Part shown: positions 12,623-51,397 of the stretch, piece by piece
How the letters are laid out: the number at the start of each line of letters is the position of its first letter
Position numbering within the stretch: position 1 is the stretch's first letter
NCBI GenBank assembly: GCA_944387505.1
Contig: CALXFG010000008.1
Location: 1-51,397 of the forward strand
Direction: 5' to 3'
DNA length: 51,397 bases
From: an uncultured Clostridia bacterium
Lineage (GTDB): Bacteria > Bacillota > Clostridia > TANB77 > CAG-508
The notes under the pieces: model-generated
Database searches by the model: none
Seen by the model: only the letters and a program-made list of their open reading frames with translations
What the model was told of the DNA's origin: nothing
Position numbers and translations under genes: made by a program

Positions 12623-13255
12623 GTGAACACCAACTTCGACATAGAAAACTTCATTCTTGACTTTTCAAATTCTTGTCAAAAAAAGCAGAAAAAAATCTTT
12701 AGCAAAAATGAAGTTGTGACAACTTACATTAAAAACCGAAATCAATTATGTATATTACTAGATGGAAATGCCGATTTAGTACGTTATGACTTAAATGGTA
12801 ATCGAACCATTGTAGAACATTTTTCAAAAAATGCTCTTTTTGGTGAAGTATTTTATACGATTACGACAAATAATGAATTATTAGTTGAAGCAAAATCAAA
12901 TTGTACGGTTCTTTTCTATAGCTATGATGATATTTTCCATAAATGTAGAAACAATTGTAAATTTCATCAAACTTTATCTGAGAACTTACCTCAACTCATA
13001 TTAAATAAAGTAACAGATTTAAATATGAGAATTGAATTATTAACCAAAAGGTCTACTAGAGATAAATTACTTGGCTATTTTTCTTTGCTTTCTACTAGAA
13101 AATTAAGTACTTCTTTTGAACTACCTTTTTCTCTAACTGATTTAGCAGATTACTTAAGTGTTGACAGAAGTGCTATGATGAGAGAACTAAAATTGTTAAA
13201 AGAAGATGGCTTTATTGAAAAAATTGGAAATCGAATTACTTTGCTTTATAAATAA
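12623..13255 (+). CDS. Crp/Fnr-family transcription regulator
   Basis: 210-aa regulator with an N-terminal cyclic-nucleotide-binding-like beta-barrel (residues about 20-115), a dimerisation helix, and a C-terminal winged helix-turn-helix (about 150-210; SLTDLADYLSVDRSAMMREL). In the recognition helix the Arg matching Fnr Arg213 is kept, while the Glu and Ser positions are changed. Cysteines are present (one near the N-terminus and a CRNNC pair) but there is no classical Fnr N-terminal Cys cluster, so the signal is unknown. GTG start, with AAAGGAGG 7-8 nt upstream. It is divergent from nrdD, and two identical palindromes in the shared spacer fit activation of nrdDG and autorepression. Confidence 0.9.
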   Translation: MNTNFDIENFILDFSNSCQKKQKKIFSKNEVVTTYIKNRNQLCILLDGNADLVRYDLNGNRTIVEHFSKNALFGEVFYTITTNNELLVEAKSNCTVLFYSYDDIFHKCRNNCKFHQTLSENLPQLILNKVTDLNMRIELLTKRSTRDKLLGYFSLLSTRKLSTSFELPFSLTDLADYLSVDRSAMMRELKLLKEDGFIEKIGNRITLLYK

Positions 13256-13259
13256 AAAA

Positions 13260-13288
13260 GGGAAATTGGGGACGGACTCATTTTTCCC
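13260..13288 (+). repeat. REP-like repeat, half copy after the Crp/Fnr gene
   Basis: GGGAAATTGGGGACGGACTC followed by ATTTTTCCC, starting 5 bp after the stop codon. It is the left end of palindromic element I. Confidence 0.85.
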
Positions 13289-13705
13289 TTTTTCTAATTT
13301 TAGAAACAGAAAAAATATAGAATATAAAAAATGAAACGATTTTGCGTATCTAAATTTGAAACTAGAAATTCTTAAAGAAAAAAATGAGAGATGTTCATGG
13401 GCAATCCAGTGATATATTCATTTCTTATAAATGTCTCGGCTCAATACGTACATTACTCTTTCTACATCAAAAATAAATGAGCCTCTCGCTGCAAGAATTC
13501 GCGCTTCCTCATTTATTTTTGATTAAGAAAGAGTACAAGTACTCCAATCACATTCGACATATTATGCGAAATGAATATATCACTGGATTGAGCCTGAATG
13601 AAAGCGGCACATTTTTTTCTTTTAGAATTTCTGTGAAAATTTAACTTATACAAAATCGTGTAATGACTTTATATTCTATATTTTTTAGATTTTGTAATTT
13701 AAAAA

Positions 13706-13733
13706 GGGAAAATGAGTCCGTCCCCAATTTCCC
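13706..13733 (-). repeat. REP-like repeat, inverted half copy after galE
   Basis: Inverted copy of the 13260 unit (GAGTCCGTCCCC core), 9 bp beyond the galE stop. It is the right end of palindromic element I and may serve as the galE terminator. Confidence 0.85.
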
Positions 13734-13741
13734 TTTTCTAT

Positions 13742-14746
13742 TTATTTTGTTGTTTGTATGTAATTCCATGAATCTAGACACATATCTTCTAGTGTTTTTT
13801 CTGCTGTCCATCCTAATTCTTCTTTTGCTTTTTGAGGGTCTGCATAACAAGTTGCTATGTCTCCTTCTCTTCTTGCTGTAATTTTATATGGTACTTTTTT
13901 TCCTGTTGCCTTTTCAAATGCTTTTACCATATCTAACACACTATATCCTTTTCCTGTTCCTAAATTGTAAATATATAATCCTTCTTTTTCTTTCTCTATT
14001 TTTTCTAATGCTTTTACATGTCCTTTTGCTAAATCTACCACATGAATATAATCTCTAACCCCTGTTCCATCTGGTGTATCATAATCATTTCCAAATACAG
14101 ATAGTTCTGGTAAAGTTCCTGCTGCAACACGTACAATATATGGCATTAAGTTATTTGGAATTCCTTGTGGTTCCTCACCAATTAGTCCGCTTTCATGCGC
14201 TCCTACTGGATTGAAATATCTTAATATACATATATTCCATGTATTGTCTGAATGATAAGTATCTTTTAAAATTTGTTCAATAAATAATTTACTTGTACCA
14301 TATGGATTTGTTGTTCCTCCCGTTTTACATTCTTCTGTTATTGGAATTATCTCTGGATCGCCATATACAGTTGCTGATGAACTAAATATAAATGTTTTAC
14401 AATTATATTTTCTCATCGTATCTAATACAACTAATGCTCCTGAAATATTATTTGTATAATATTCAATTGGTTTTTGAACAGATTCTCCTACAGCTTTAAA
14501 TCCTGCAAAATTGATAACTGCTTCTATGTCATTTTCTTCAAAAACTTTTTCTAGTTTTTCTCTATCCATATAATTCATTTCATAAAATTTAAAATCTTTT
14601 CCTGTTATTTTCTTAATTGCATCTAATACGCTTGGTTTGCTATTAGAAAAATCATCTATAATAACAATTTCTTTTCCTGCATTTAATAATTCTACTGCTG
14701 TATGACTTCCAATAAATCCAGCTCCTCCTGGTAATAATATTGCCAT
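13742..14746 (-). CDS. galE: UDP-glucose 4-epimerase GalE
   Basis: Interconverts UDP-glucose and UDP-galactose using bound NAD+, supplying galactose for surface sugars or the Leloir pathway. 334 aa, typical. Seen: Rossmann motif [11 protein letters not shown] at residues 7-17, DDFSNS, the catalytic FSSSATVYG serine region, YGTSK with the catalytic Tyr/Lys (about residue 149), RYFNPVGAH, and [12 protein letters not shown]. The N-terminus reads AILLPGG where AILVTGG is usual; the glycines are intact. Ribosome site AAGGA. It stands alone here, with no other gal gene. Its 3' end abuts palindromic element I. Confidence 0.96.
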
Positions 14747-14910
14747 AAAATCATTCCTTTCTTTTTTATTATGCCTATATTATATTACTAGTTTCAAAAA
14801 AGTACAAGTCTATATTTTAAAATATTAATTTAAAATATCTGAATATCTGATTTAAAAAATTTCTTATGAATTTTTATTTCTTTACCCTTTTAACTACATA
14901 CTCTCTGGTC

Positions 14911-14939
14911 TTTACAAATTTATGTAAATCTGATATAAT
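14911..14939 (+). promoter_or_regulatory. Sigma-A promoter of orphan gene C
   Basis: TTTACA (14911-14916), 17-bp spacer, TATAAT (14934-14939) with a TGA just upstream. The leader of about 95 nt contains two small stems: AAGCA/TGCTT near 14952, and ATCACC/GGTGAT near 14978-14997. Confidence 0.75.
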
Positions 14940-15039
14940 ATTGAAGGATTAAGCAAAATTGCTTGATGCAGAAAATCCATCACCTCTTTTGGTGATTTCA
15001 ATATAGATGTAACATTTAAAAAACACAGGGAGAAAAAAA

Positions 15040-15447
15040 ATGGAAAAAAAAAGAGAAAAAAATTCTTTAGACACTTTTTGTAAGGTAGTAGGTGCCATTG
15101 TAATAATCATTGGTATCTTATCAGTAGTAATAGTGATTGCCGAGCTCTTCGCCCCTCCGGCTACAAGAGTACGGGATTCAGCATTTATAGAGGAAACTCT
15201 TGAAATGGCTGATGACAATACCCATTCAGAGGAAAAGGCAATGCTTGCTGATTTTGTTAAAAATCAGTATGATTGTGCCCCAGAAAAAGTGGTGTTTTAT
15301 GTCCATGCACCACATGATGCAATGGACTTTGATGTCGAAATCTATTATAAAGATTCCGGCACATGGTTCCATTGCTTAGTAAATGGGTCATCGCCAAAAT
15401 TCTCTAAGGAGCTGTACAATCGGCTTTCCTACTTAGCAACTCAGTAA
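15040..15447 (+). CDS. Orphan gene C, small membrane-anchored protein
   Basis: 135-aa protein not recognised. The N-terminus is basic (MEKKREKN), then one membrane helix (about residues 17-38, VVGAIVIIIGILSVVIVIAEL), then a soluble domain of about 95 residues with a YYKDSGTWFHCLVNG segment. Such a layout puts the domain outside the cell if the basic end stays in; a lipobox is not seen. The gene has its own promoter, a GGGAG ribosome site and a strong terminator. Its G+C content is well above that of cysS and galE on either side (GCC, CGG and CTG codons). It therefore groups with orphan genes A and B as a likely acquired single-gene unit. Confidence 0.75.
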   Translation: MEKKREKNSLDTFCKVVGAIVIIIGILSVVIVIAELFAPPATRVRDSAFIEETLEMADDNTHSEEKAMLADFVKNQYDCAPEKVVFYVHAPHDAMDFDVEIYYKDSGTWFHCLVNGSSPKFSKELYNRLSYLATQ

Positions 15448-15453
15448 ACTCAT

Positions 15454-15491
15454 CCCATCTCCAACTGCAATGCAGAAGGAGATGGGTTTTT
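15454..15491 (+). terminator. Terminator of orphan gene C
   Basis: CCCATCTCC (15454-15462) pairs with GGAGATGGG (15478-15486), followed at once by TTTTT. A textbook intrinsic terminator 6 bp after the stop. Confidence 0.9.
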
Positions 15492-15560
15492 CCTATTATA
15501 TGAAAGATTTAACTTTTATCTCAGTGACATATAAAATTTTTCGTATACAACAACTATTAA

Positions 15561-15610
15561 AAAATGAATCTAACTTATTAACCATTTCTCTAATAAGTTA
15601 GATTCATTTT
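15561..15610 (-). terminator. Terminator of cysS
   Basis: A 20-bp stem: AATGAATCTAACTTATTA on one side and its complement on the other, with a 10-nt loop. On the minus strand it follows the cysS stop by 6 bp and runs into TTTTTTAA. Confidence 0.85.
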
Positions 15611-15616
15611 CCTTAC

Positions 15617-17014
15617 TTAAAGTTCACTAATTTCCATTCCGTCTTTTGTATCTTTTACTTCATATCCTTTTTCTTTGATTAAATCTCTTAATCTATCTGA
15701 CTCTGCCCAATTTTTTTCTTGTCTTGCCTGTTTTCTTTCTTCTACAAGTTTTAAAACTTCTTCTGGAATTTCTATTTCTTTATTTGTCTCTTCTTGATCA
15801 ATTTTAATTCCTAATACTGTATCAAATTTTAGTAATAATTTCGCAATCTCTGGTGATTTTTTTGGATATTTAATGACTTCCCATACAAAACTCATAGCCA
15901 AAGGCATATTCATATCATCATTAATGGCTTTATGGAATTCATTTTCTAATCTATCTAATTCTTTTTTATCTTCTTCGTTTAAAGTATCTGTTCCATGTTT
16001 ATTTGCTTGATAACCATTTCTTAATCTTTCTAATGATTTTGAAGATGCTTCTATTCCTTCCCATGTAAAGTTTAATTTATTTCTATAACTAGATGTATAA
16101 CATAACAATTTATATACCAATGGGTCATATCCTTTTTCTTTAATGTCTTTTAATAAGTAAACATTTCCTAAGCTTTTTGACATTTTGCCACCATTGATTA
16201 ATAGATATTCCCCATGTATCCAATAGTTAGCAGGTATTTTACCACATACACCTTTACTTTGTGCAATTTCATTTTCATGGTGTGTTGGTATTAAATCAAT
16301 TCCTCCTGTATGAATATCAAATTGTTCTCCTAAATGTTTTCTTGACATGGCTGAACATTCAATATGCCATCCTGGATAACTTGGTCCCCATGGACTATCC
16401 CATTTCATTAAATGATTTTCTGGAGCTTTTATCCATAAAGCAAAATCATATGGATTTTTCTTTTCTGGATCCACGTCCACTCTTGCTCCTGCTTTTTGTT
16501 CTTCTACATTTAAGTTTGATAAAACTGGATATTTATCTAATTTAGAAACATCAAAATAGATAGCAGTTGATGTTTCATATGCATATCCTTTTTCTACAAG
16601 TTCTTCTACATATTCTAGCATTTCTGGAATATAATCTGTTGCTTTACAAATAATTTCAGGTATTTCAATATTTAAATCTTTTAAGTCATCAAAAAATAAC
16701 TTGGTATAATGTTCCGCTATTTCTAATGGTGTTTTATGTTCTTCTCTAGCTGATTTAATCATCTTGTCTTCCCCTTCATCTCCATCAGAAACCAGATGTC
16801 CTACATCTGTTATATTCATAACATGTTTAATTGTATATCCATTATATTTTAACATTCTTCTTAAAACATCTTGAAATATATTTGTTCTCATATTTCCAAT
16901 CGTTGCATCTTTATATACAGTTGGTCCACATGAATATATTCTTACTTCCTTTTCATTGATTGGCTTAAATAAATCTTTTTCCTTTGTTAATGTATTATAT
17001 AGATATATATCCAC
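15617..17014 (-). CDS. cysS: Cysteinyl-tRNA synthetase
   Basis: Class I aminoacyl-tRNA synthetase that charges tRNA-Cys. 465 aa, family length. Seen: Cys29 of the zinc site in SCGPTVY, the remaining zinc ligands in HIECSAM and HHENEIAQ, GGKMSKSLGN (KMSKS loop), and a C-terminal anticodon-binding helical domain. Odd point: the HIGH signature reads TIGN (residues 38-41), so its first His is Thr. The start is GTG, with AAGGGATGAT 6 nt upstream. No T-box leader is visible. The gene stands alone, with its own terminator and the PBP terminator stem just upstream. Confidence 0.95.
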   Translation of the reverse strand: MDIYLYNTLTKEKDLFKPINEKEVRIYSCGPTVYKDATIGNMRTNIFQDVLRRMLKYNGYTIKHVMNITDVGHLVSDGDEGEDKMIKSAREEHKTPLEIAEHYTKLFFDDLKDLNIEIPEIICKATDYIPEMLEYVEELVEKGYAYETSTAIYFDVSKLDKYPVLSNLNVEEQKAGARVDVDPEKKNPYDFALWIKAPENHLMKWDSPWGPSYPGWHIECSAMSRKHLGEQFDIHTGGIDLIPTHHENEIAQSKGVCGKIPANYWIHGEYLLINGGKMSKSLGNVYLLKDIKEKGYDPLVYKLLCYTSSYRNKLNFTWEGIEASSKSLERLRNGYQANKHGTDTLNEEDKKELDRLENEFHKAINDDMNMPLAMSFVWEVIKYPKKSPEIAKLLLKFDTVLGIKIDQEETNKEIEIPEEVLKLVEERKQARQEKNWAESDRLRDLIKEKGYEVKDTKDGMEISEL

Positions 17015-17066
17015 TGTTTCATCATCCCTTTCTTATAATGCATTTATTTTGATTGATTTTTGTTTC

Positions 17067-17101
17067 AAATTGAGATGTGAAAAATATTCACATCTCAATT
17101 T
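17067..17101 (-). terminator. Terminator of the PBP gene
   Basis: AAATTGAGATGTGAA (17067-17081) pairs with TTCACATCTCAATTT (17087-17101), a 15-bp stem with a 5-nt loop between the PBP stop and the cysS start. A T-run follows only on the plus strand. Confidence 0.7.
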
Positions 17102-17119
17102 TTTCTTTGTTTTTTATGA

Positions 17120-19750
17120 TTACTGAACAACATTTTCAGTTGGTTTTGTTGTATTTCCATTTCCTCCTGTACTATTACCACCACTTGGAGGATTTTCTCC
17201 ACCGCCTGAAGGTTTTTCTCCAGTTGTATTTCCTCCACTTATTGTATTTCCTCCTCCTGTAGAGTTTGTTGTATTTGTCGTATTCGTATTTGTTTCAGGT
17301 TTTTTAGGTTCTTCCTCTTTCGGTTTTGTATGTAATGTACATACTCCATTTATTCTAGTTCCTGATGCACTTGATCCACTAACTGGTGTCCATAATCCTA
17401 ATTGTTCTTTTGGTAAAACAGCACCATAATAATTTTGTCTAACCTGGCAATATTGTGAACAATATTGTGTTGCCACTAATCCAGATTCTGAACAAATGGT
17501 TTGACTTCCATGTCCCTCACATTGTTCTGGTAAATTATCCTGTGTAAAGATTTCTGTATATTTATTATTACATCCTGTTGTTGCTAAACATCCTGTAGTT
17601 TTACATACTGTTTGTTCTACTATACCGCTTGGTCTTGTAAATGTCGCATTTTCTAAATCTTTATGAATTGCTGTCATAACACCATCCCAAATATTACCTG
17701 CTGGATTTCCAGAATAATGTACAGTCTCTGGTTGATCATATCCAAACCAACAAGCACCTGCATAATATGGTGTAAATCCACAAAGCCATCTATCGTAATC
17801 ATCATCTGTTGTTCCCGTCTTTGCTGCTACATCCATTCCACTAATTGCGCAATAGGTTGCTGTTCCACCAGATTTCACTGGTTCTTGTAATATAGATTTT
17901 ACAATATAAGCATTTTGTTCTGATATCACCCTTGTTTGTTCTTGTTTTGGAGTTAATACGGTATTACCACTCGTATCTACCACTTTTGTATAAAAGGTTG
18001 GCGTAATATATACACCATCATTTGCAATAGTGCTATATGCTGCTGCCATTTCTAATGGTGTAGCACCATTCGTTGTTCCTCCTAACGCTAAAGATAAATC
18101 TGAATCTTCATCTGCATTAATATGACTAAGTCCCATTTTATTCAAGTACTCTATTGATTTACTTGGTGTTAATTCTCTCATAATTTTTACTGCTGGTATA
18201 TTTAAAGATTTTGAAATGAAATATCTTATATTGACTGCTTTATTATTATATCCACTTTGATTTTTTGGAATATAACCTCCTCCAAAATCTGTTTCTTGAT
18301 CCATATAGGCTGTTGCTGCTGTTATCACTTTTTCTTGTAATGCTGGCGCTATAACTGCAATTGGTTTAATAGAAGAACCTGTTTGTCTAATACTTTGTGT
18401 TGCTCTATTTAATCCTCTTGAATCTGTTTTTTCTCCTAATCCTCCAACCGTTCCTAACACATTACCTGTTTTATAATCGATTACTACCATTGCTGCTTGA
18501 GAATGATCATTCTTCTTTTCTCCAGTTTTGCTATCCACATCTCTTCCTGCAACAATATATTTATCTTTTGCAAATTCTTCTTCCATTTGTGCTTGAATAT
18601 TGTTATCAACTGTTGAATAAATGGTAAGTCCACTACTATATACATAGTTTTCCGCTAATTGTTGAGACCAACCTTTTTCTTCCATAACTTGGTCAATAAC
18701 TTGATCTAATACAGCTTCTGTATGATATGAATATGAAGAAGTTGTTGCAATTGCTCCTTTTTGGAAATTTAAACCTGCATCAACTTCTGCAATTGCTGCA
18801 TCATATTCCTCTTGACTATTGATATACCCTAATTCTTTCATTTTATTTAAAGCTACTTTTGTTTGTTTTTTGATTAATTCTGTATTATCTGTTGTTTCAT
18901 CAAATGGATTATACCTACTTGGAGAACTATTAATTCCTGCCATATATGCACATTCTGCTAATGTTAAATCTTTTGCACTTTTGTTAAAATAATATTCTGC
19001 ACCTAATTCAACACCATGTAAATTACCTTCTCCACCAACATATAATATATTTAAGTATAACTCTAAAATTTGATCTTTAGATATCATTCTTTCAACTTGG
19101 TAAGCTTTTGCCCATTCTCTTACTTTTCTCATAATACCAGCTATACCGCTTCTCTCATCATCTTGTGTAAGATTTTTTACTAATTGCTGTGTAATTGTAC
19201 TTCCACCATAAGAACTATTTCCCAATACCGTTTGTAAAATCGCTCCTGCTGTTCTTTTTAAGTCCACACCATGATGTTGATAAAATCTTTCATCTTCCAT
19301 AGCCACATAAGCTTTTGGTAAATATTCTGCCATATCTTCAAGGGTAATAATTTTTCTCTTTTCATCACCACTTAGTTCGGCAATTACAGCACCATTTTGG
19401 TCTACTACCACAGAATTAGCTGCACCTATCGTTAATTCTTCTTTCGTAATTTCAAAATCGTCACCAAATAGGCCAAAAAATACACCTACTATAATGCCTG
19501 CCCCAATAACACATAGTAATAAGAAAATCAATATAAAGATTTTTATTGCCTTCATTAATTTAGGATGTCTTGAAGAAAATTTACCTTCTTTTTTATTTGA
19601 TTTTCTTTCTCTGCCATTTCTGTTTTTCTCTGGAATTCTTCTTGTTGTTCCCCTAGTTGATGTACTACTCTTTCTTCTTTTCTTTGCATTTTTCATATTG
19701 TATTTTCTTGTATTTTCTTTTCTATTACTTCTTTTATTACTACTTGGCAT
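17120..19750 (-). CDS. Class A penicillin-binding protein (PBP1A family)
   Basis: Bifunctional peptidoglycan synthase: glycosyltransferase plus transpeptidase. 876 aa. Layout: very basic Ser/Arg/Lys-rich cytoplasmic tail (1-60), one membrane helix (about 67-92), GT51 domain with EDERFYQHHGVD and the GGSTITQQLVKN motif, then transpeptidase domain with the active-site SxxK in TGSSIKPI, SxN in SKSLN and KTGT. After it comes a Cys-rich segment (about ten Cys, including TTGC and CSQYC) and a disordered Thr/Asn/Gly/Pro tail. Ribosome site AAGGAGG. The substrate would be the amidated lipid II made through MurT-GatD. The Cys-rich extracellular block is unusual and may form disulfides. Confidence 0.95.
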   Translation of the reverse strand: MPSSNKRSNRKENTRKYNMKNAKKRRKSSTSTRGTTRRIPEKNRNGRERKSNKKEGKFSSRHPKLMKAIKIFILIFLLLCVIGAGIIVGVFFGLFGDDFEITKEELTIGAANSVVVDQNGAVIAELSGDEKRKIITLEDMAEYLPKAYVAMEDERFYQHHGVDLKRTAGAILQTVLGNSSYGGSTITQQLVKNLTQDDERSGIAGIMRKVREWAKAYQVERMISKDQILELYLNILYVGGEGNLHGVELGAEYYFNKSAKDLTLAECAYMAGINSSPSRYNPFDETTDNTELIKKQTKVALNKMKELGYINSQEEYDAAIAEVDAGLNFQKGAIATTSSYSYHTEAVLDQVIDQVMEEKGWSQQLAENYVYSSGLTIYSTVDNNIQAQMEEEFAKDKYIVAGRDVDSKTGEKKNDHSQAAMVVIDYKTGNVLGTVGGLGEKTDSRGLNRATQSIRQTGSSIKPIAVIAPALQEKVITAATAYMDQETDFGGGYIPKNQSGYNNKAVNIRYFISKSLNIPAVKIMRELTPSKSIEYLNKMGLSHINADEDSDLSLALGGTTNGATPLEMAAAYSTIANDGVYITPTFYTKVVDTSGNTVLTPKQEQTRVISEQNAYIVKSILQEPVKSGGTATYCAISGMDVAAKTGTTDDDYDRWLCGFTPYYAGACWFGYDQPETVHYSGNPAGNIWDGVMTAIHKDLENATFTRPSGIVEQTVCKTTGCLATTGCNNKYTEIFTQDNLPEQCEGHGSQTICSESGLVATQYCSQYCQVRQNYYGAVLPKEQLGLWTPVSGSSASGTRINGVCTLHTKPKEEEPKKPETNTNTTNTTNSTGGGNTISGGNTTGEKPSGGGENPPSGGNSTGGNGNTTKPTENVVQ

Positions 19751-19938
19751 ACGTTTACCTCCTTGCCAATTTGTACAAATTTCGTTTTGTAAGAACTTTT
19801 TATTTACTCATTTGTATCTTATGATTTCGTCTCGTTCTGTAAAATCGATATCTACATTATATTATATTTTGTAAAAAAAGGAAAGTACTTGATAAAATTT
19901 TATTTTGAAATGAAATGAATTCAAATATTTATGTATTT

Positions 19939-20769
19939 TTAAATGATCGTTTTCGCTCCTTGTAAATATTGAATCGTCACTCTATCTTTTTTTATTTTTT
20001 TTAATATTTCTTCTATTGGTTGATGTTTATATTGCATTGCCATATAAATGTCTTTTGCTTCAAACTTCTCTAGATGTGGATTTGTTTTCCAATTAATTTC
20101 ATAATCATTAATATTTAATCCATTAAACCTTTTGTTTTTTATTTTTACATTTCCCTTAAAATTGATAATTGTCGCTGTATTATTCATTGTATATCGATTA
20201 ATTAATTCTGTTGGAAAATCTAAGTTTAATATAATATTCGTTTTAGATAGACTTTTTCTTTTATTGTTTCCCACATTAATAAATATCCCTTGTTCCTGTG
20301 AAATCTTTTCTTCAATATTTTGAAAAAGCTCTATATGATTGGTAACAATTCTTACATATTTATATTTAAGAACTAATTTTTGAATTGCATAAATTGCTAA
20401 ACTTGAAATATCATTTACCAAAATCCCAATTTTTATATCTTCATTTTTAATTTTTAACTTTTTTATCACATATTCTAAAACCTCAAAAATTAACATTTGA
20501 AATAACCATTTACCATCTACAATTTCATAGTTGTACGAGTACAAATAATCAACATAATTTTCTTGTTGTTTAACCTTTTTACTTAATACTATTTTTTTAC
20601 TATTACTTTTATCTAGAATCTTCTTGGTTTTACTTGCTAACCTATATGCTGTTTTTTCATCCAAACTTGTCTCTGTTATGGGCAAAATAATGGTATCATT
20701 TTCTAATTTTACAAGATGGAACCATTCAGCTATTTTACTAGGCTTGTCAGTTTCTTTTATATAATACAT
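19939..20769 (-). CDS. Unknown 276-aa protein downstream of truB
   Basis: Not recognised. A soluble basic protein of mixed alpha/beta type with no signal peptide. Residues about 110-205 contain alternating hydrophobic strands (IKIGILVND, YVRIVTNH, NIILNLDF, TATIINFKG), which suggests a Rossmann-like core. The ATG is preceded by AGGTGA, 6 nt away, but that ribosome site is in the 3' arm of a strong hairpin (20770-20817). It is the last gene of the truB-side minus-strand block, separated from truB by palindromic element III. The weak start access suggests low or conditional translation. Confidence 0.7.
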   Translation of the reverse strand: MYYIKETDKPSKIAEWFHLVKLENDTIILPITETSLDEKTAYRLASKTKKILDKSNSKKIVLSKKVKQQENYVDYLYSYNYEIVDGKWLFQMLIFEVLEYVIKKLKIKNEDIKIGILVNDISSLAIYAIQKLVLKYKYVRIVTNHIELFQNIEEKISQEQGIFINVGNNKRKSLSKTNIILNLDFPTELINRYTMNNTATIINFKGNVKIKNKRFNGLNINDYEINWKTNPHLEKFEAKDIYMAMQYKHQPIEEILKKIKKDRVTIQYLQGAKTII

Positions 20770-20817
20770 AAAATCACCTCATATACTTTTCTCTTTTAAG
20801 TATATTAAGGTGATTTT
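20770..20817 (-). promoter_or_regulatory. Hairpin sequestering a ribosome binding site
   Basis: AAAATCACCT pairs with AGGTGATTTT (10 bp), and inside it AAGTATAT pairs with ATATACTT (8 bp) around a short A-rich loop. On the minus strand the 3' arm is the Shine-Dalgarno of the gene starting at 20769, ending right at the ATG. Confidence 0.7.
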
Positions 20818-20832
20818 CATTATAGAACTTAT

Positions 20833-20950
20833 ATTATAACTTAATGCACAAGTGGTATGTATTCATAAATTATTTATTACTCGGTTCAATACGATATTTA
20901 AGAATTTGTAACATAATACATACCACTTGTGCATTAAGTTAAGTTATAAT
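20833..20950. repeat. Palindromic element III (118 bp)
   Basis: ATTATAACTTAATGCACAAG and on to GGTATGTATT (left arm, 20833-20863) pairs almost perfectly with the right arm ending at 20950; the right arm has one extra AACTT copy. The roughly 50-nt loop carries CTCGGTTCAATACG (20880-20893), nearly identical to the motif in element I. The inner stem and apex of elements I and II are absent. It lies between truB and the 276-aa gene. Confidence 0.85.
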
Positions 20951-20952
20951 TA

Positions 20953-21819
20953 TCATTTTTCATTTATAATAATATCCCTTTTTAAAAGAAAATCTTGTAA
21001 AATTCCAATTCCAATAAATTGATGATTATAATATATTTTATAAAGTCCATCTTCTAATTTAAAACTTAACTTTACACCATTTAAAAATAATTGTAATTTT
21101 TTTTCATCTAACTCTATATTCTCTAAATTTTTAAATAAATTTTCAATGGTTATCATATGTTTTTCAACACTTTCTTCATTTAAATCTTCCGCCAAAACAG
21201 ATTGTTCTATAGTAAATGTTCCAACCTTTGTTCTTTGCAATTCTTTCATATATCCGACTGTTCCCATTTTTTGTGCTATATCTTCACACAAACTTCTGAT
21301 ATATGTTCCTTTTGAACAACTGACTTCAAATTGAATCTCACAACTTTCTTTATCTATTTTTAATAATTTGATATCATAGATTGTTATCTTTCTTGGCTTA
21401 ATTTCTACTGCTTGTCCCTTTCTTGCATATTCATAAAGCTTTTTTCCTTTTACTTTAATAGCAGAATAGATTGGTGGTATTTGTTCTTGCTCTCCTAAGA
21501 AACTTTCTAAAACCGTTTTTACTTTTTTTCCCTCTAATACTTTCTCATCAACCACTTCTTGTTGTAGAATTTCTCCTTCCTCATCTCCTGTACTTTTCTT
21601 GATTCCTAGTTTTAAAACCACTTTATATGTTTTATCATGATTCATTAAATATTTAGAACATAATGTTCCTTTTCCAATTAATAGTGGTAATACACCTGTT
21701 GCTAATGGATCTAATGTACCTGTGTGTCCCACTTTCTCTCCTGTGATTTTTTTTACTTTTGTAACAATATCATGGGATGTATATCCTTTTGATTTATTAA
21801 CAATTAATATTCCATTCAT
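20953..21819 (-). CDS. truB: tRNA pseudouridine(55) synthase TruB
   Basis: Converts U55 in the T-loop of tRNAs to pseudouridine. 288 aa, usual length. Seen: N-terminal GILIVNKSKGYTSHD, catalytic Asp37 in GHTGTLDPLATGVLP, YSAIKVKGKKLYEYAR, and SKGTYIRSLCEDI. A short PUA-like C-terminal part follows. It belongs to the rbfA-nrnA-truB end of the translation operon. Palindromic element II fills the gap to nrnA and element III follows the stop. Confidence 0.97.
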   Translation of the reverse strand: MNGILIVNKSKGYTSHDIVTKVKKITGEKVGHTGTLDPLATGVLPLLIGKGTLCSKYLMNHDKTYKVVLKLGIKKSTGDEEGEILQQEVVDEKVLEGKKVKTVLESFLGEQEQIPPIYSAIKVKGKKLYEYARKGQAVEIKPRKITIYDIKLLKIDKESCEIQFEVSCSKGTYIRSLCEDIAQKMGTVGYMKELQRTKVGTFTIEQSVLAEDLNEESVEKHMITIENLFKNLENIELDEKKLQLFLNGVKLSFKLEDGLYKIYYNHQFIGIGILQDFLLKRDIIINEK

Positions 21820-21835
21820 ATTTGACCTCTTTTTT

Positions 21836-22063
21836 ACGTTTCAGTATTTTTTCACAGGTGCGGTACCATACATTATTTTTTGAATGATTTCCTCGGCTTG
21901 TTTCATAGATTATAATTTCTAAGTTTTTAATAAGTGAGCCTCTCGCTGCTCGCGCTTCCTCACTTATTAAAAACTAAGAATTTATACATCTATTCCACGG
22001 CACATTCGTCAATGCATTCAAAAAATAATGTATGGTACCGCACCTGTAAAAATACTGAAACGC
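21836..22063. repeat. Palindromic element II (228 bp nested hairpin)
   Basis: Arms of about 100 nt. The outer stem includes ACAGGTGCGGTACCATACAT and on to TTTTTTGAATG with a perfect complement, and its tip is CGTTTCAGTATTTTT/AAAATACTGAAACG. The inner stem AGTTTTTAATAAGTGAG pairs with its complement. Unpaired parts: CTCGGCTTG (21892-21900), a 20-nt apex CCTCTCGCTGC + TCGCGCTTC (21939-21958), and CACATTCGTC (22001-22010). Apex and side loops match element I, but the stems do not. It sits inside the co-directional nrnA-truB transcript. Confidence 0.9.
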
Positions 22064-22072
22064 AAATACTGA

Positions 22073-23026
22073 TTATAATACTTTCTTTATTTCTTTTATT
22101 AATTTTTCTTTTACTTGTTCAACTGTTCCTGATACGGTTGCACCTGCTGCTCTTGGATGTCCTCCCCCGCCAAAAATGTAACAAATATCAGAAACATTAA
22201 TATTGGAACCATTTCCTGTTCTCATAGAAACTTTATATAGATTTTCTTCTTTTTCACGTATAAATACAGAAACCTTAACTCCTTCTATGCTTCTTCCACT
22301 TTCTACAATACCTTCATGGTCTCCAGGTTCGGCATGTACATCTTCTTCATCTTGTTTATTGATATATGTAAATGCAATTCTGTCATCTTCTAAAAGTTCT
22401 AATCGATTCATTGCTCTTCTTAACAATTCAAAGTTGGATTTTCTCCTTGTTTCCAATACTCTTTGATAAATATCAGATATGTTTACACCTTTTCTTAGCA
22501 ATTCTGCTGTAAATTCAAATGTTTCTGCAGTTACACTAGAATACTTAAATCCGCCTGTGTCTGTGATAATTCCTGTTACAATACAACTTCCGATTTCTGC
22601 ATCAATGTCAATATCGAAATATTCAAACATACCTGCTAAAATTTCGCAACAAGCAGGAGATACTGGATTCACAAAATTCAAATCTCCATACATCATATTA
22701 GAACTATGATGGTCAATGACTATTGTTTTTTTGGCTTTTTCAAAATATTCTCTTCCAACCAATCTTTTTAAATCAGCACAGTCTAATGAAATGGCTAAAT
22801 CATATGTTTCCACATCTGAAGTTGTTTTTACTGTATTGGCTCCTGGTAAGAAATCAAATGTTCTCGGAAATTCTTTTACAATCACATCTACTTTCTTTCC
22901 CATTTTCTTTAAAGCCAAGTTCATTGATAATACACTACCTATAGCATCTCCATCTGGTGATTCATGTGCCATGACAATAATGGTTTCTGCTTGTTTTATT
23001 TCTACTAAAATATCATCTAATGTCAT
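22073..23026 (-). CDS. nrnA: DHH-family nanoRNase/pAp phosphatase NrnA
   Basis: Degrades very short RNAs and dephosphorylates 3'-phosphoadenosine 5'-phosphate. 317 aa. Seen: motif I HESPDGDAIGS (His21, Asp25, Asp27), motif II DCAD, motif III IDHHSSN, and the C-terminal DHHA1 domain ending in GGGGHPRAAG. Its ATG is 4 nt after the rbfA stop and the ribosome site GAGAGGAAAGGA lies within rbfA, so the pair is translationally coupled. The rbfA-nrnA-truB order is the standard one in Bacillota. Confidence 0.96.
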   Translation of the reverse strand: MTLDDILVEIKQAETIIVMAHESPDGDAIGSVLSMNLALKKMGKKVDVIVKEFPRTFDFLPGANTVKTTSDVETYDLAISLDCADLKRLVGREYFEKAKKTIVIDHHSSNMMYGDLNFVNPVSPACCEILAGMFEYFDIDIDAEIGSCIVTGIITDTGGFKYSSVTAETFEFTAELLRKGVNISDIYQRVLETRRKSNFELLRRAMNRLELLEDDRIAFTYINKQDEEDVHAEPGDHEGIVESGRSIEGVKVSVFIREKEENLYKVSMRTGNGSNINVSDICYIFGGGGHPRAAGATVSGTVEQVKEKLIKEIKKVL

Positions 23027-51243: not shown

Positions 51244-51319
51244 GGTCGCTTAGCTCAGCTGGGAGAGCATCTGCCTTACAAGCAGGGGGTCACAGGTTCG
51301 AGCCCTGTAGCGACCACCA
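51244..51319 (+). tRNA. tRNA-Val (TAC)
   Basis: 76-nt cloverleaf: acceptor GGTCGCT/AGCGACC, D-loop AGCTGGGAGA, anticodon TAC within CTTACAA, T-arm GGTTCGAGCC, discriminator A and an encoded CCA at 51317-51319. Confidence 0.97.
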
Positions 51320-51329
51320 TGTTTTTTAC

Positions 51330-51397
51330 GGCCCGGTAGTTCAGTTGGTTAGAACGCTAGCCTGTCACGCTAGAGGTCGACGGTTCGAGCCCGTTCC
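51330..51397 (+). tRNA. tRNA-Asp (GTC), cut by window end
   Basis: Starts GGCCCGG, D-loop AGTTGGTTAGA, anticodon GTC within CTGTCAC, T-arm GGTTCGAGCC. About 9 nt of the 3' acceptor strand lie outside the window. It is 10 bp after tRNA-Val in the same transcript. Confidence 0.95.

What the first reader, a model, noticed from the sequence alone, without database searches (positions are those of the whole stretch)
13254..22063. Family of nested palindromes with covarying stems and constant unpaired motifs
Elements I (13254-13740), II (21836-22063) and III (20833-20950) are large hairpins whose stem sequences are unrelated, yet three unpaired motifs are shared in the same order and strand: CTCGGYTCAATACG on the left (I and III; CTCGGCTTG in II), the apex CCTCTCGCTGC + TCGCGCTTC (I and II; I has a 6-nt insert), and CACATTCG on the right (I and II). 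The closing stem is ATGAG/CTCAT in I and GTGAG/CTCAC in II, a compensatory change. Stems that drift while pairing and loops are kept point to selection on a folded RNA or single-stranded DNA. Simple mobile repeats would share stem sequence. I know of no named family with these motifs; that is an absence of recognition, not a search result.
Basis: partly seen in the sequence, partly recalled or inferred. Interest (0 to 1): 0.85.

Follow-up and report, generated by a model that had tools for sequence, protein, structure and literature searches.

The report
Mobile hairpin element carrying structured RNA
The three large hairpins are copies of a small jumping DNA element, found in many uncultured Clostridia, whose core looks like a new structured RNA and whose outer arms seem to be kept matched by DNA copying and flipping rather than by selection on RNA.

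Summary
In detail: I, II and III are extreme hairpins with shared unpaired motifs. They belong to a multicopy family found in 130 of 385 genomes of the order (23 of 48 genera, all but one genome in one family) and, across the phylum, in 1 of 398 (the window's own). They are MITE-like: many copies have TIRs (GTTACAATTCACAG) and 8-bp target duplications. II sits at a site that is empty in relatives; III is a deletion derivative; I is a core nested in a REPIN-like palindrome.

The covariation has two causes. The outer arms show no strand bias (155 v 143), change in compensated pairs, and the core is inverted at 8 of 19 orthologous sites: the two described products of template switching between inverted repeats.

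No Rfam match, partner transposase or published description was found in limited searches. The RNA's function is unknown; most likely a mobile ncRNA serving the element.

The parts
13254..13384 (+). left arm of the outer REPIN-like palindrome of element I (GGGGACGGACTC end)
   Evidence: repeated in G000; folds with 13612-13740 in related copies
13385..13611 (-). inner unit of element I (A type) nested in the apex; predicted RNA strand is minus
   Evidence: 98% identical unit in another outer context, G000:C5:22472-22698; fold z -9.8
13423..13569 (-). RNA core of element I: loop 1, stem S2, loop 2/apex
   Evidence: model R1 match, 138.3 bits; this copy was in the model's own training set
   Evidence: sequence, alignment
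13482..13507 (-). loop 2 and apex
   Evidence: sequence, alignments
   Evidence: sequence
13612..13740 (+). right arm of the outer REPIN-like palindrome of element I
20836..20945 (-). element III: D-type element that lost most of its core and right half
   Evidence: fold z -11.0; orthologous full-length copy L125
20880..20893 (-). remaining loop 1 motif of III (CTCGGTTCAATACG on + strand)
21838..21891 (.). outer arm S1 of element II, left (bounds approximate)
21880..22021 (-). RNA core of element II with about 12 nt of arm on each side; predicted RNA strand is minus
   Evidence: model R1 match, 158.4 bits; in the model's own training set
21939..21958 (-). loop 2 and apex of II (CCTCTCGCTGC + TCGCGCTTC)
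22009..22062 (.). outer arm S1 of element II, right (bounds approximate)
   Evidence: the gap between the two flanking genes is 0-59 nt in 9 of 18 relatives looked at

Best explanation
A family of small non-autonomous DNA transposons (MITE-like) that carry a structured-RNA core. INFERRED: (1) an unidentified DDE-type transposase, encoded elsewhere, moves them in trans; (2) the arms stay complementary because DNA polymerase template switching (or arm-to-arm recombination) copies one arm onto the other and sometimes flips the spacer; (3) the core is transcribed, probably from a promoter within the element, since the strand bias is much the same whichever way the upstream gene points; (4) the RNA, with two internal loops on a long helix, most likely binds a protein and helps the element itself (mobility or expression). 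Step 4 is a guess at about one in three.
For: TSDs: 54 TIR-bounded elements with distinct flanks, mean flank identity 0.69 in the 8-bp register against 0.36-0.42 in registers 5-7 and 9-11; 13 of 54 perfect 8-mers. Empty sites: the two genes flanking II are 0-59 nt apart, without element, in 9 of 18 relatives. Strand test on 84 disjoint sister pairs from 177 elements: core 118 G.U v 28 A.C, p 2.4e-14; arms 155 v 143, p 0.52; for S2, 45 sister pairs with more G.U than A.C, 4 with fewer, 35 ties. Arms 15-30 nt out from the core: 68 compensatory, 6 G.U, 7 A.C, 19 other in 62 sister pairs with alignable arms, mostly scattered single positions rather than blocks. Inversion: L050 v L312, flanks almost identical, interior between the arms inverted; 8 of 19 orthologous sites. 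Bias whatever the upstream gene: 28 v 5 with an antisense upstream gene, 11 v 3 with a sense one (p 0.06 alone), 11 v 0 with none close by. Template switching is reported to yield both arm homogenisation and spacer inversion (PMC8604942, passages read) and to create and maintain hairpin stems (PMC8794818, abstract and start of introduction).
Against: No autonomous partner was found: no TIR pair around IS256 or ISL3 transposases (one lone TIR-like site in L385), IS1595 absent from 58 genomes. No expression data. G.T is also better tolerated than A.C in single-stranded DNA (general knowledge), so the strand bias alone does not prove RNA. B-, D- and C-type ends (AAGTTTCAG..., TGTTCAGACC..., GGGGACGG...) are not the canonical TIR, and no clear TSD was seen for II. 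27 of 54 TIR-bounded elements match at 6 or fewer of the 8 TSD positions (one of them, L126, is perfect at 9). Inversions come from draft assemblies; assembly error at inverted repeats is not excluded, though the arms (about 31 bp in L050) are short; only 3 of the flipped pairs were inspected base by base. Selection for a perfect DNA hairpin could also give compensatory change without intermediates. Arms beyond 30 nt have many uncompensated changes (182 other, 62 G.U, 56 A.C against 73 compensatory).
Confidence: 0.72

Rival explanations
1. The core is selected as single-stranded DNA of one strand (for example a hairpin bound by a nuclease or transposase during transfer or replication), not as RNA.
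For: G.T is also less disruptive than A.C in DNA (general knowledge); the elements are mobile; some cores also sit inside REPIN-like palindromes, and REP-type elements are processed as ssDNA (recalled).
Against: TIRs with 8-bp target duplications point to cut-and-paste of double-stranded DNA (inference). The bias is confined to the core plus at most about 15 nt of arm, whereas a transposing ssDNA hairpin should include the arms.
Confidence: 0.17
2. The core is an mRNA element that acts only when host transcription reads through it (terminator, insulator or processing site that softens insertion damage).
For: Copies sit between genes (1 of 131 inside an ORF), often between genes of one direction (68 of 109).
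Against: The predicted RNA strand is antisense to the flanking operon more often than sense (47 v 21, p 0.002), and the G.U excess is seen when the upstream gene is antisense (28 v 5) as well as when sense (11 v 3).
Confidence: 0.15
3. Everything is mutational: template switching keeps all stems paired, and the loops are just the parts that do not pair; no RNA or ssDNA function.
For: The arms near the core behave like this; the process is proposed to maintain hairpins (PMC8794818).
Against: It predicts no strand bias in S2; the core has 118 v 28. It does not explain why loop motifs stay constant while stems change.
Confidence: 0.06
4. A member of a known RNA or mobile family that the libraries miss (IS110 bridge RNA, attC-like site, retron ncRNA, small ribozyme).
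For: Two conserved internal loops on covarying stems look like several such classes (resemblance recalled only).
Against: No Rfam match at gathering score apart from tRNAs and only matches far below the cut-offs, mostly to microRNA families, in permissive searches; no linked ORF seen; TIR plus 8-bp TSD is not the IS110 pattern (recalled).
Confidence: 0.06

Closest known systems
MITEs (miniature inverted-repeat transposable elements)
   Same: short, TIRs, target duplications, many copies, intergenic
   Different: the interior is a conserved folded core selected on one strand; copies with different outer ends share it; core orientation flips in place; cognate transposase not found
REPINs / REP elements (PMC3116915, PMC3733652: search listing only)
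   Same: outer palindrome of element I has GGGGACGG-type ends in inverted pairs
   Different: the core is independent of these ends and also occurs in TIR-bounded elements; no RAYT gene was looked for
Inverted repeats evolving by template switching (PMC8604942 passages; PMC8794818 abstract and start of introduction)
   Same: arm homogenisation and spacer inversion, compensatory change without intermediates
   Different: the published cases seen here are short yeast coding repeats and RNA genes; here a mobile element with a second, selected stem inside
Borrelia plasmid intergenic stem-loop repeats (PMC2674063, passages read)
   Same: repeated intergenic stem-loops with compensatory base pairs, compared there with MITEs
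   Different: short stems (11-21 bp in the passages read), other organism; no strand test or long homogenised arms in the passages read
Rfam 15 families
   Same: covarying stems with conserved loops, the usual form of an RNA family
   Different: no match of the elements at gathering score (whole window); permissive searches weak only

Membership tests
MITE | terminal inverted repeats | tested here: met
   GTTACAATTCACAG at both ends of many copies; pattern in 24 of 39 genus genomes, reversed control pattern in 0 of 39; 54 bounded elements. B, D and C types have other ends
MITE | target-site duplication | tested here: met
   8 bp, mean identity 0.69 v 0.36-0.42 in other registers, 54 elements; not clear for element II
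MITE | short, no transposase gene | tested here: met
   54 TIR-bounded elements are 64-387 bp, but the search was limited to under 420 bp. A mechanical 88-aa ORF starts inside II and runs out of it (21934-22200). Wider spacing of core motifs: two cases, 821 and 3394 nt, with ORFs, not followed further
MITE | autonomous relative with the same ends | tested here: inconclusive
   no TIR pair next to IS256 or ISL3 genes, IS1595 absent in 58 genomes; ORFs beside lone TIRs were only looked at by eye; other DDE families not searched; draft genomes often lose IS copies (general knowledge)
REPIN | inverted pair of REP-like ends with a RAYT gene in the genome | not tested
   REP-like ends seen for the outer part of I and some other copies; no RAYT search
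Template-switching inverted repeat | arm homogenisation | tested here: met
   68 compensatory v 32 uncompensated changes (6 G.U, 7 A.C, 19 other) in arms 15-30 nt out; weaker beyond 30 nt
Template-switching inverted repeat | spacer inversion | tested here: met
   8 of 19 orthologous sites; 3 flipped pairs inspected
Structured RNA family | covariation on one strand with G.U intermediates | tested here: met
   118 v 28 in the core
Structured RNA family | transcribed | not testable with these tools
   no RNA-seq
Any Rfam family | match above gathering score | tested here: not met
   window at gathering score: tRNAs only; elements at permissive thresholds: no family over its cut-off apart from a tRNA beside L254
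IS110 bridge RNA | RNA beside an IS110 recombinase gene, element without 8-bp TSD | tested here: not met
   TSD 8 bp, no carrier ORF seen between core motifs at normal spacing; definition recalled; IS110 genes not searched

The most novel reading that the evidence does not exclude
A new class of structured RNA gene that travels as a mobile, self-inverting element: a trans-acting RNA with its own promoter, held between arms that are re-copied from each other and that flip it relative to neighbouring genes, spread through one family of uncultured Clostridia.
Probability: 0.45. Interest if true: 0.78.

Novelty: new variant of a known kind. Interest (0 to 1): 0.62.

Why it matters
It is a natural test case in which one molecule holds two stems kept by two different forces: arms kept paired by DNA copying without selection on RNA, and a core stem kept by selection on one strand. 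That shows directly that covariation alone, the usual proof of RNA structure, can mislead, and that the G.U versus A.C strand test tells the two apart. It also offers an apparently undescribed RNA family in a clade of uncultured Clostridia, with frequent in-place inversion that could switch its relation to neighbouring genes.

Tried and rejected
Rejected or unsuccessful: a known Rfam RNA; a carrier ORF between core motifs (two wide pairs of 821 and 3394 nt were not followed further); IS256, ISL3 and IS1595 as the partner; presence in IMG/VR viral contigs (one exact pattern, 0 hits), plasmids or phages (one D-type copy); arms as blocks of swapped sequence (one search shows mostly scattered single changes); read-through from the upstream gene as the source of selection. 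The first mismatch count mixed core and arms and repeated contexts, and was replaced. A fixed S2 length as a geometric constraint was looked at and no single length came out. The strand test on the REPIN-like C family was too small (6 elements; inner 3 G.U v 0 A.C, outer 2 v 3). In the flip analysis, element II's flagged flip (L029 v L325) was spurious on inspection and dropped, as were pair L111/L351 (same orientation, weak flanks) and the self-pairs of L109 and L159; the edge list was typed by hand, leaving out redundant edges of one cluster. Rows with N, or with short flanks, were dropped before the strand counts (185 cores found; 177 used). The orientation count used loci numbered 120 and up only.

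Literature: searches listed no description of this family; the library holds only open-licence PMC papers. Papers seen: PMC2674063, PMC9606305 and PMC8604942, passages; PMC8794818, abstract, start of introduction and section list; all others as search listings only.
Full report
What is there. The window is a whole contig (C8) of a 1.86-Mb draft genome. The three hairpins exist as described and are far more stable than shuffled sequence (z -9.8, -18.4, -11.0). Element I is a compound: an outer palindrome with REP-like GGGGACGG ends, of which many partial copies occur in the genome, and in its apex a 227-bp unit that is 98% identical to a unit nested in a different palindrome at C5:22472-22698. 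Element II is one of about nine II-type copies in the genome. Element III is a truncated D-type element: its relative G034 has the full element at the same site, and III lacks about 118 nt of it.

A family. The types share one plan: outer arm S1, an internal loop 1 (reader strand CTCGGYTCAATACG or CTCGGCTTG on the left, CCAATCACATTCG or CCACGGCACATTCG on the right), stem S2, an internal loop 2 and an apex. On the opposite strand loop 2 is one of five forms (GAAG, GGATG, GAATG or GAA against AGAGG-type, AAAATG against AGGGTG) in 116 of 179 cores with a predicted loop 2. The REPIN-like C type has a similar loop 2 but not the loop 1 motifs (by eye). Covariation is clear: 17 of 33 pairs with double changes in 15 copies of the I/II type, 42 of 43 in 112 rows from 100 fetched loci, the latter on a model-fitted alignment in which about 19 rows are second matches on the other strand of the same copies.

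Distribution. Two covariance models (R1 from 15 copies, R2 from 7) hit 23 and 24 of 55 genomes, all in the same genus (35 genomes including the window's own), 0 of 20 in other genera. A wider draw gave 130 of 385 genomes of the order, 23 of 48 genera, all in family f1 except G091 in f5, and 1 of 398 in the phylum, the window's own. Searches of over 40 genomes use stricter filters and score few candidates per genome, so these are lower bounds. Viral contigs: 0 for that pattern; plasmids and phages: none for one D-type copy.

Mobility. Many copies end in GTTACAATTCACAG. The pattern occurs in 24 of 39 genus genomes, its reversed control in none. Among 54 TIR-bounded elements with distinct flanks the flanks match best at exactly 8 bp (0.69 against 0.36-0.42 in other registers), 13 perfectly; 27 of 54 match at 6 or fewer of 8 positions. 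The same ends bound elements of about 64-107, 157-160 and 195-197 bp; three read in full (73, 159 and 196 bp) have other interiors. At the site of II, between a TruB-family and a DHH-family gene, the gap is 0-59 nt with no element in 9 of 18 relatives; in three it is 95, 102 and 223 nt, two of them holding REP-like palindromes (L410, L415); in six (L405-L409, L417) the TruB gene was not adjacent or could not be aligned, among them the closest relative. No copy with a carrier ORF was identified, and IS256, ISL3 and IS1595 searches gave no partner, so the transposase is unknown.

Which strand, and which stems. By segment the bias is in S2 (67 v 11 and 28 v 7), weaker in the apex (23 v 10, p 0.035) and, in pairs with alignable arms, in the first 15 nt of the arm (14 v 3, p 0.013; 16 v 7, p 0.09 in the core-distance set). 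It is absent further out.

The arms. In arms 15-30 nt out from the core, 62 sister pairs show 68 compensatory changes, 6 G.U, 7 A.C and 19 other; beyond 30 nt compensation is weaker (73 against 300 uncompensated). The changes are mostly scattered single positions. At orthologous sites the core is often inverted between its arms: L050 and L312 have almost identical flanks and differ mainly by inversion of the interior; over 165 copies with usable flanks I found 19 orthologous sites, 8 with a flip, 3 flipped pairs inspected. Arm homogenisation and spacer inversion are the two products described for polymerase template switching between inverted repeats (PMC8604942), and template switching is proposed to create and maintain hairpin stems (PMC8794818). 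Ordinary recombination between arms would do as well.

Expression. Between genes of one direction the RNA strand is antisense to the operon in 47 copies and sense in 21 (p 0.002; 131 copies, 109 with both neighbours, the other 41 between divergent or convergent genes; orthologous copies were not all removed). The G.U excess is present when the upstream gene is antisense (28 v 5), sense (11 v 3) or not close (11 v 0). Read-through from the upstream gene is therefore not needed, which points to an own promoter; this is inference. In the window, II and III have the RNA strand co-directional with their operon and I lies between convergent genes.

Verdict. No Rfam family matches the elements and no description was found in the searches listed, in an open-access library only. 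I file it as a new variant of a known kind: MITE-type mobile elements with an apparently undescribed structured-RNA cargo.

Noticed in passing
L262, L263, L264 (and other TIR-bounded loci): The same GTTACAATTCACAG ends bound other small elements (73, 159, 196 bp) with different palindromic interiors; the 196-bp one has its own elaborate fold.
   Followed up: partly
L049 and L052 (G000), L254 (G058): Long forms of the A2-type core carry an extra insertion of roughly 130-170 nt with several hairpins (GGCGCC...GTGTGCATTGAG, on the RNA strand) shared between two genomes; perhaps a fuller version of the RNA.
   Followed up: partly
window 13254-13384 and 13612-13740; L410, L415: REPIN-like palindromes with GGGGACGG ends; in two relatives such a palindrome sits at the very site where the window has element II.
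   Followed up: partly
G091 (family f5): Only genome outside family f1 with a model match (E 1.9e-17); possible horizontal transfer or contamination.
   Followed up: no
D-type cores such as L057: Loop 1 GGCTCAAT is the exact complement of ATTGAGCC at the tip of S2, so an alternative pairing or pseudoknot is possible.
   Followed up: no
L339 (near 6168), L349 (near 5810): D-type apex with a nested A-type unit (L349) or a core-less remnant of one (L339), both in reverse orientation, as in element I.
   Followed up: partly
L313 (near 6804), L293 (near 16): Core motifs spaced 821 and 3394 nt apart with ORFs between them; may be two separate elements or an interrupted one.
   Followed up: no
window 51244-51397: Two adjacent tRNA genes at the contig end.
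   Followed up: no
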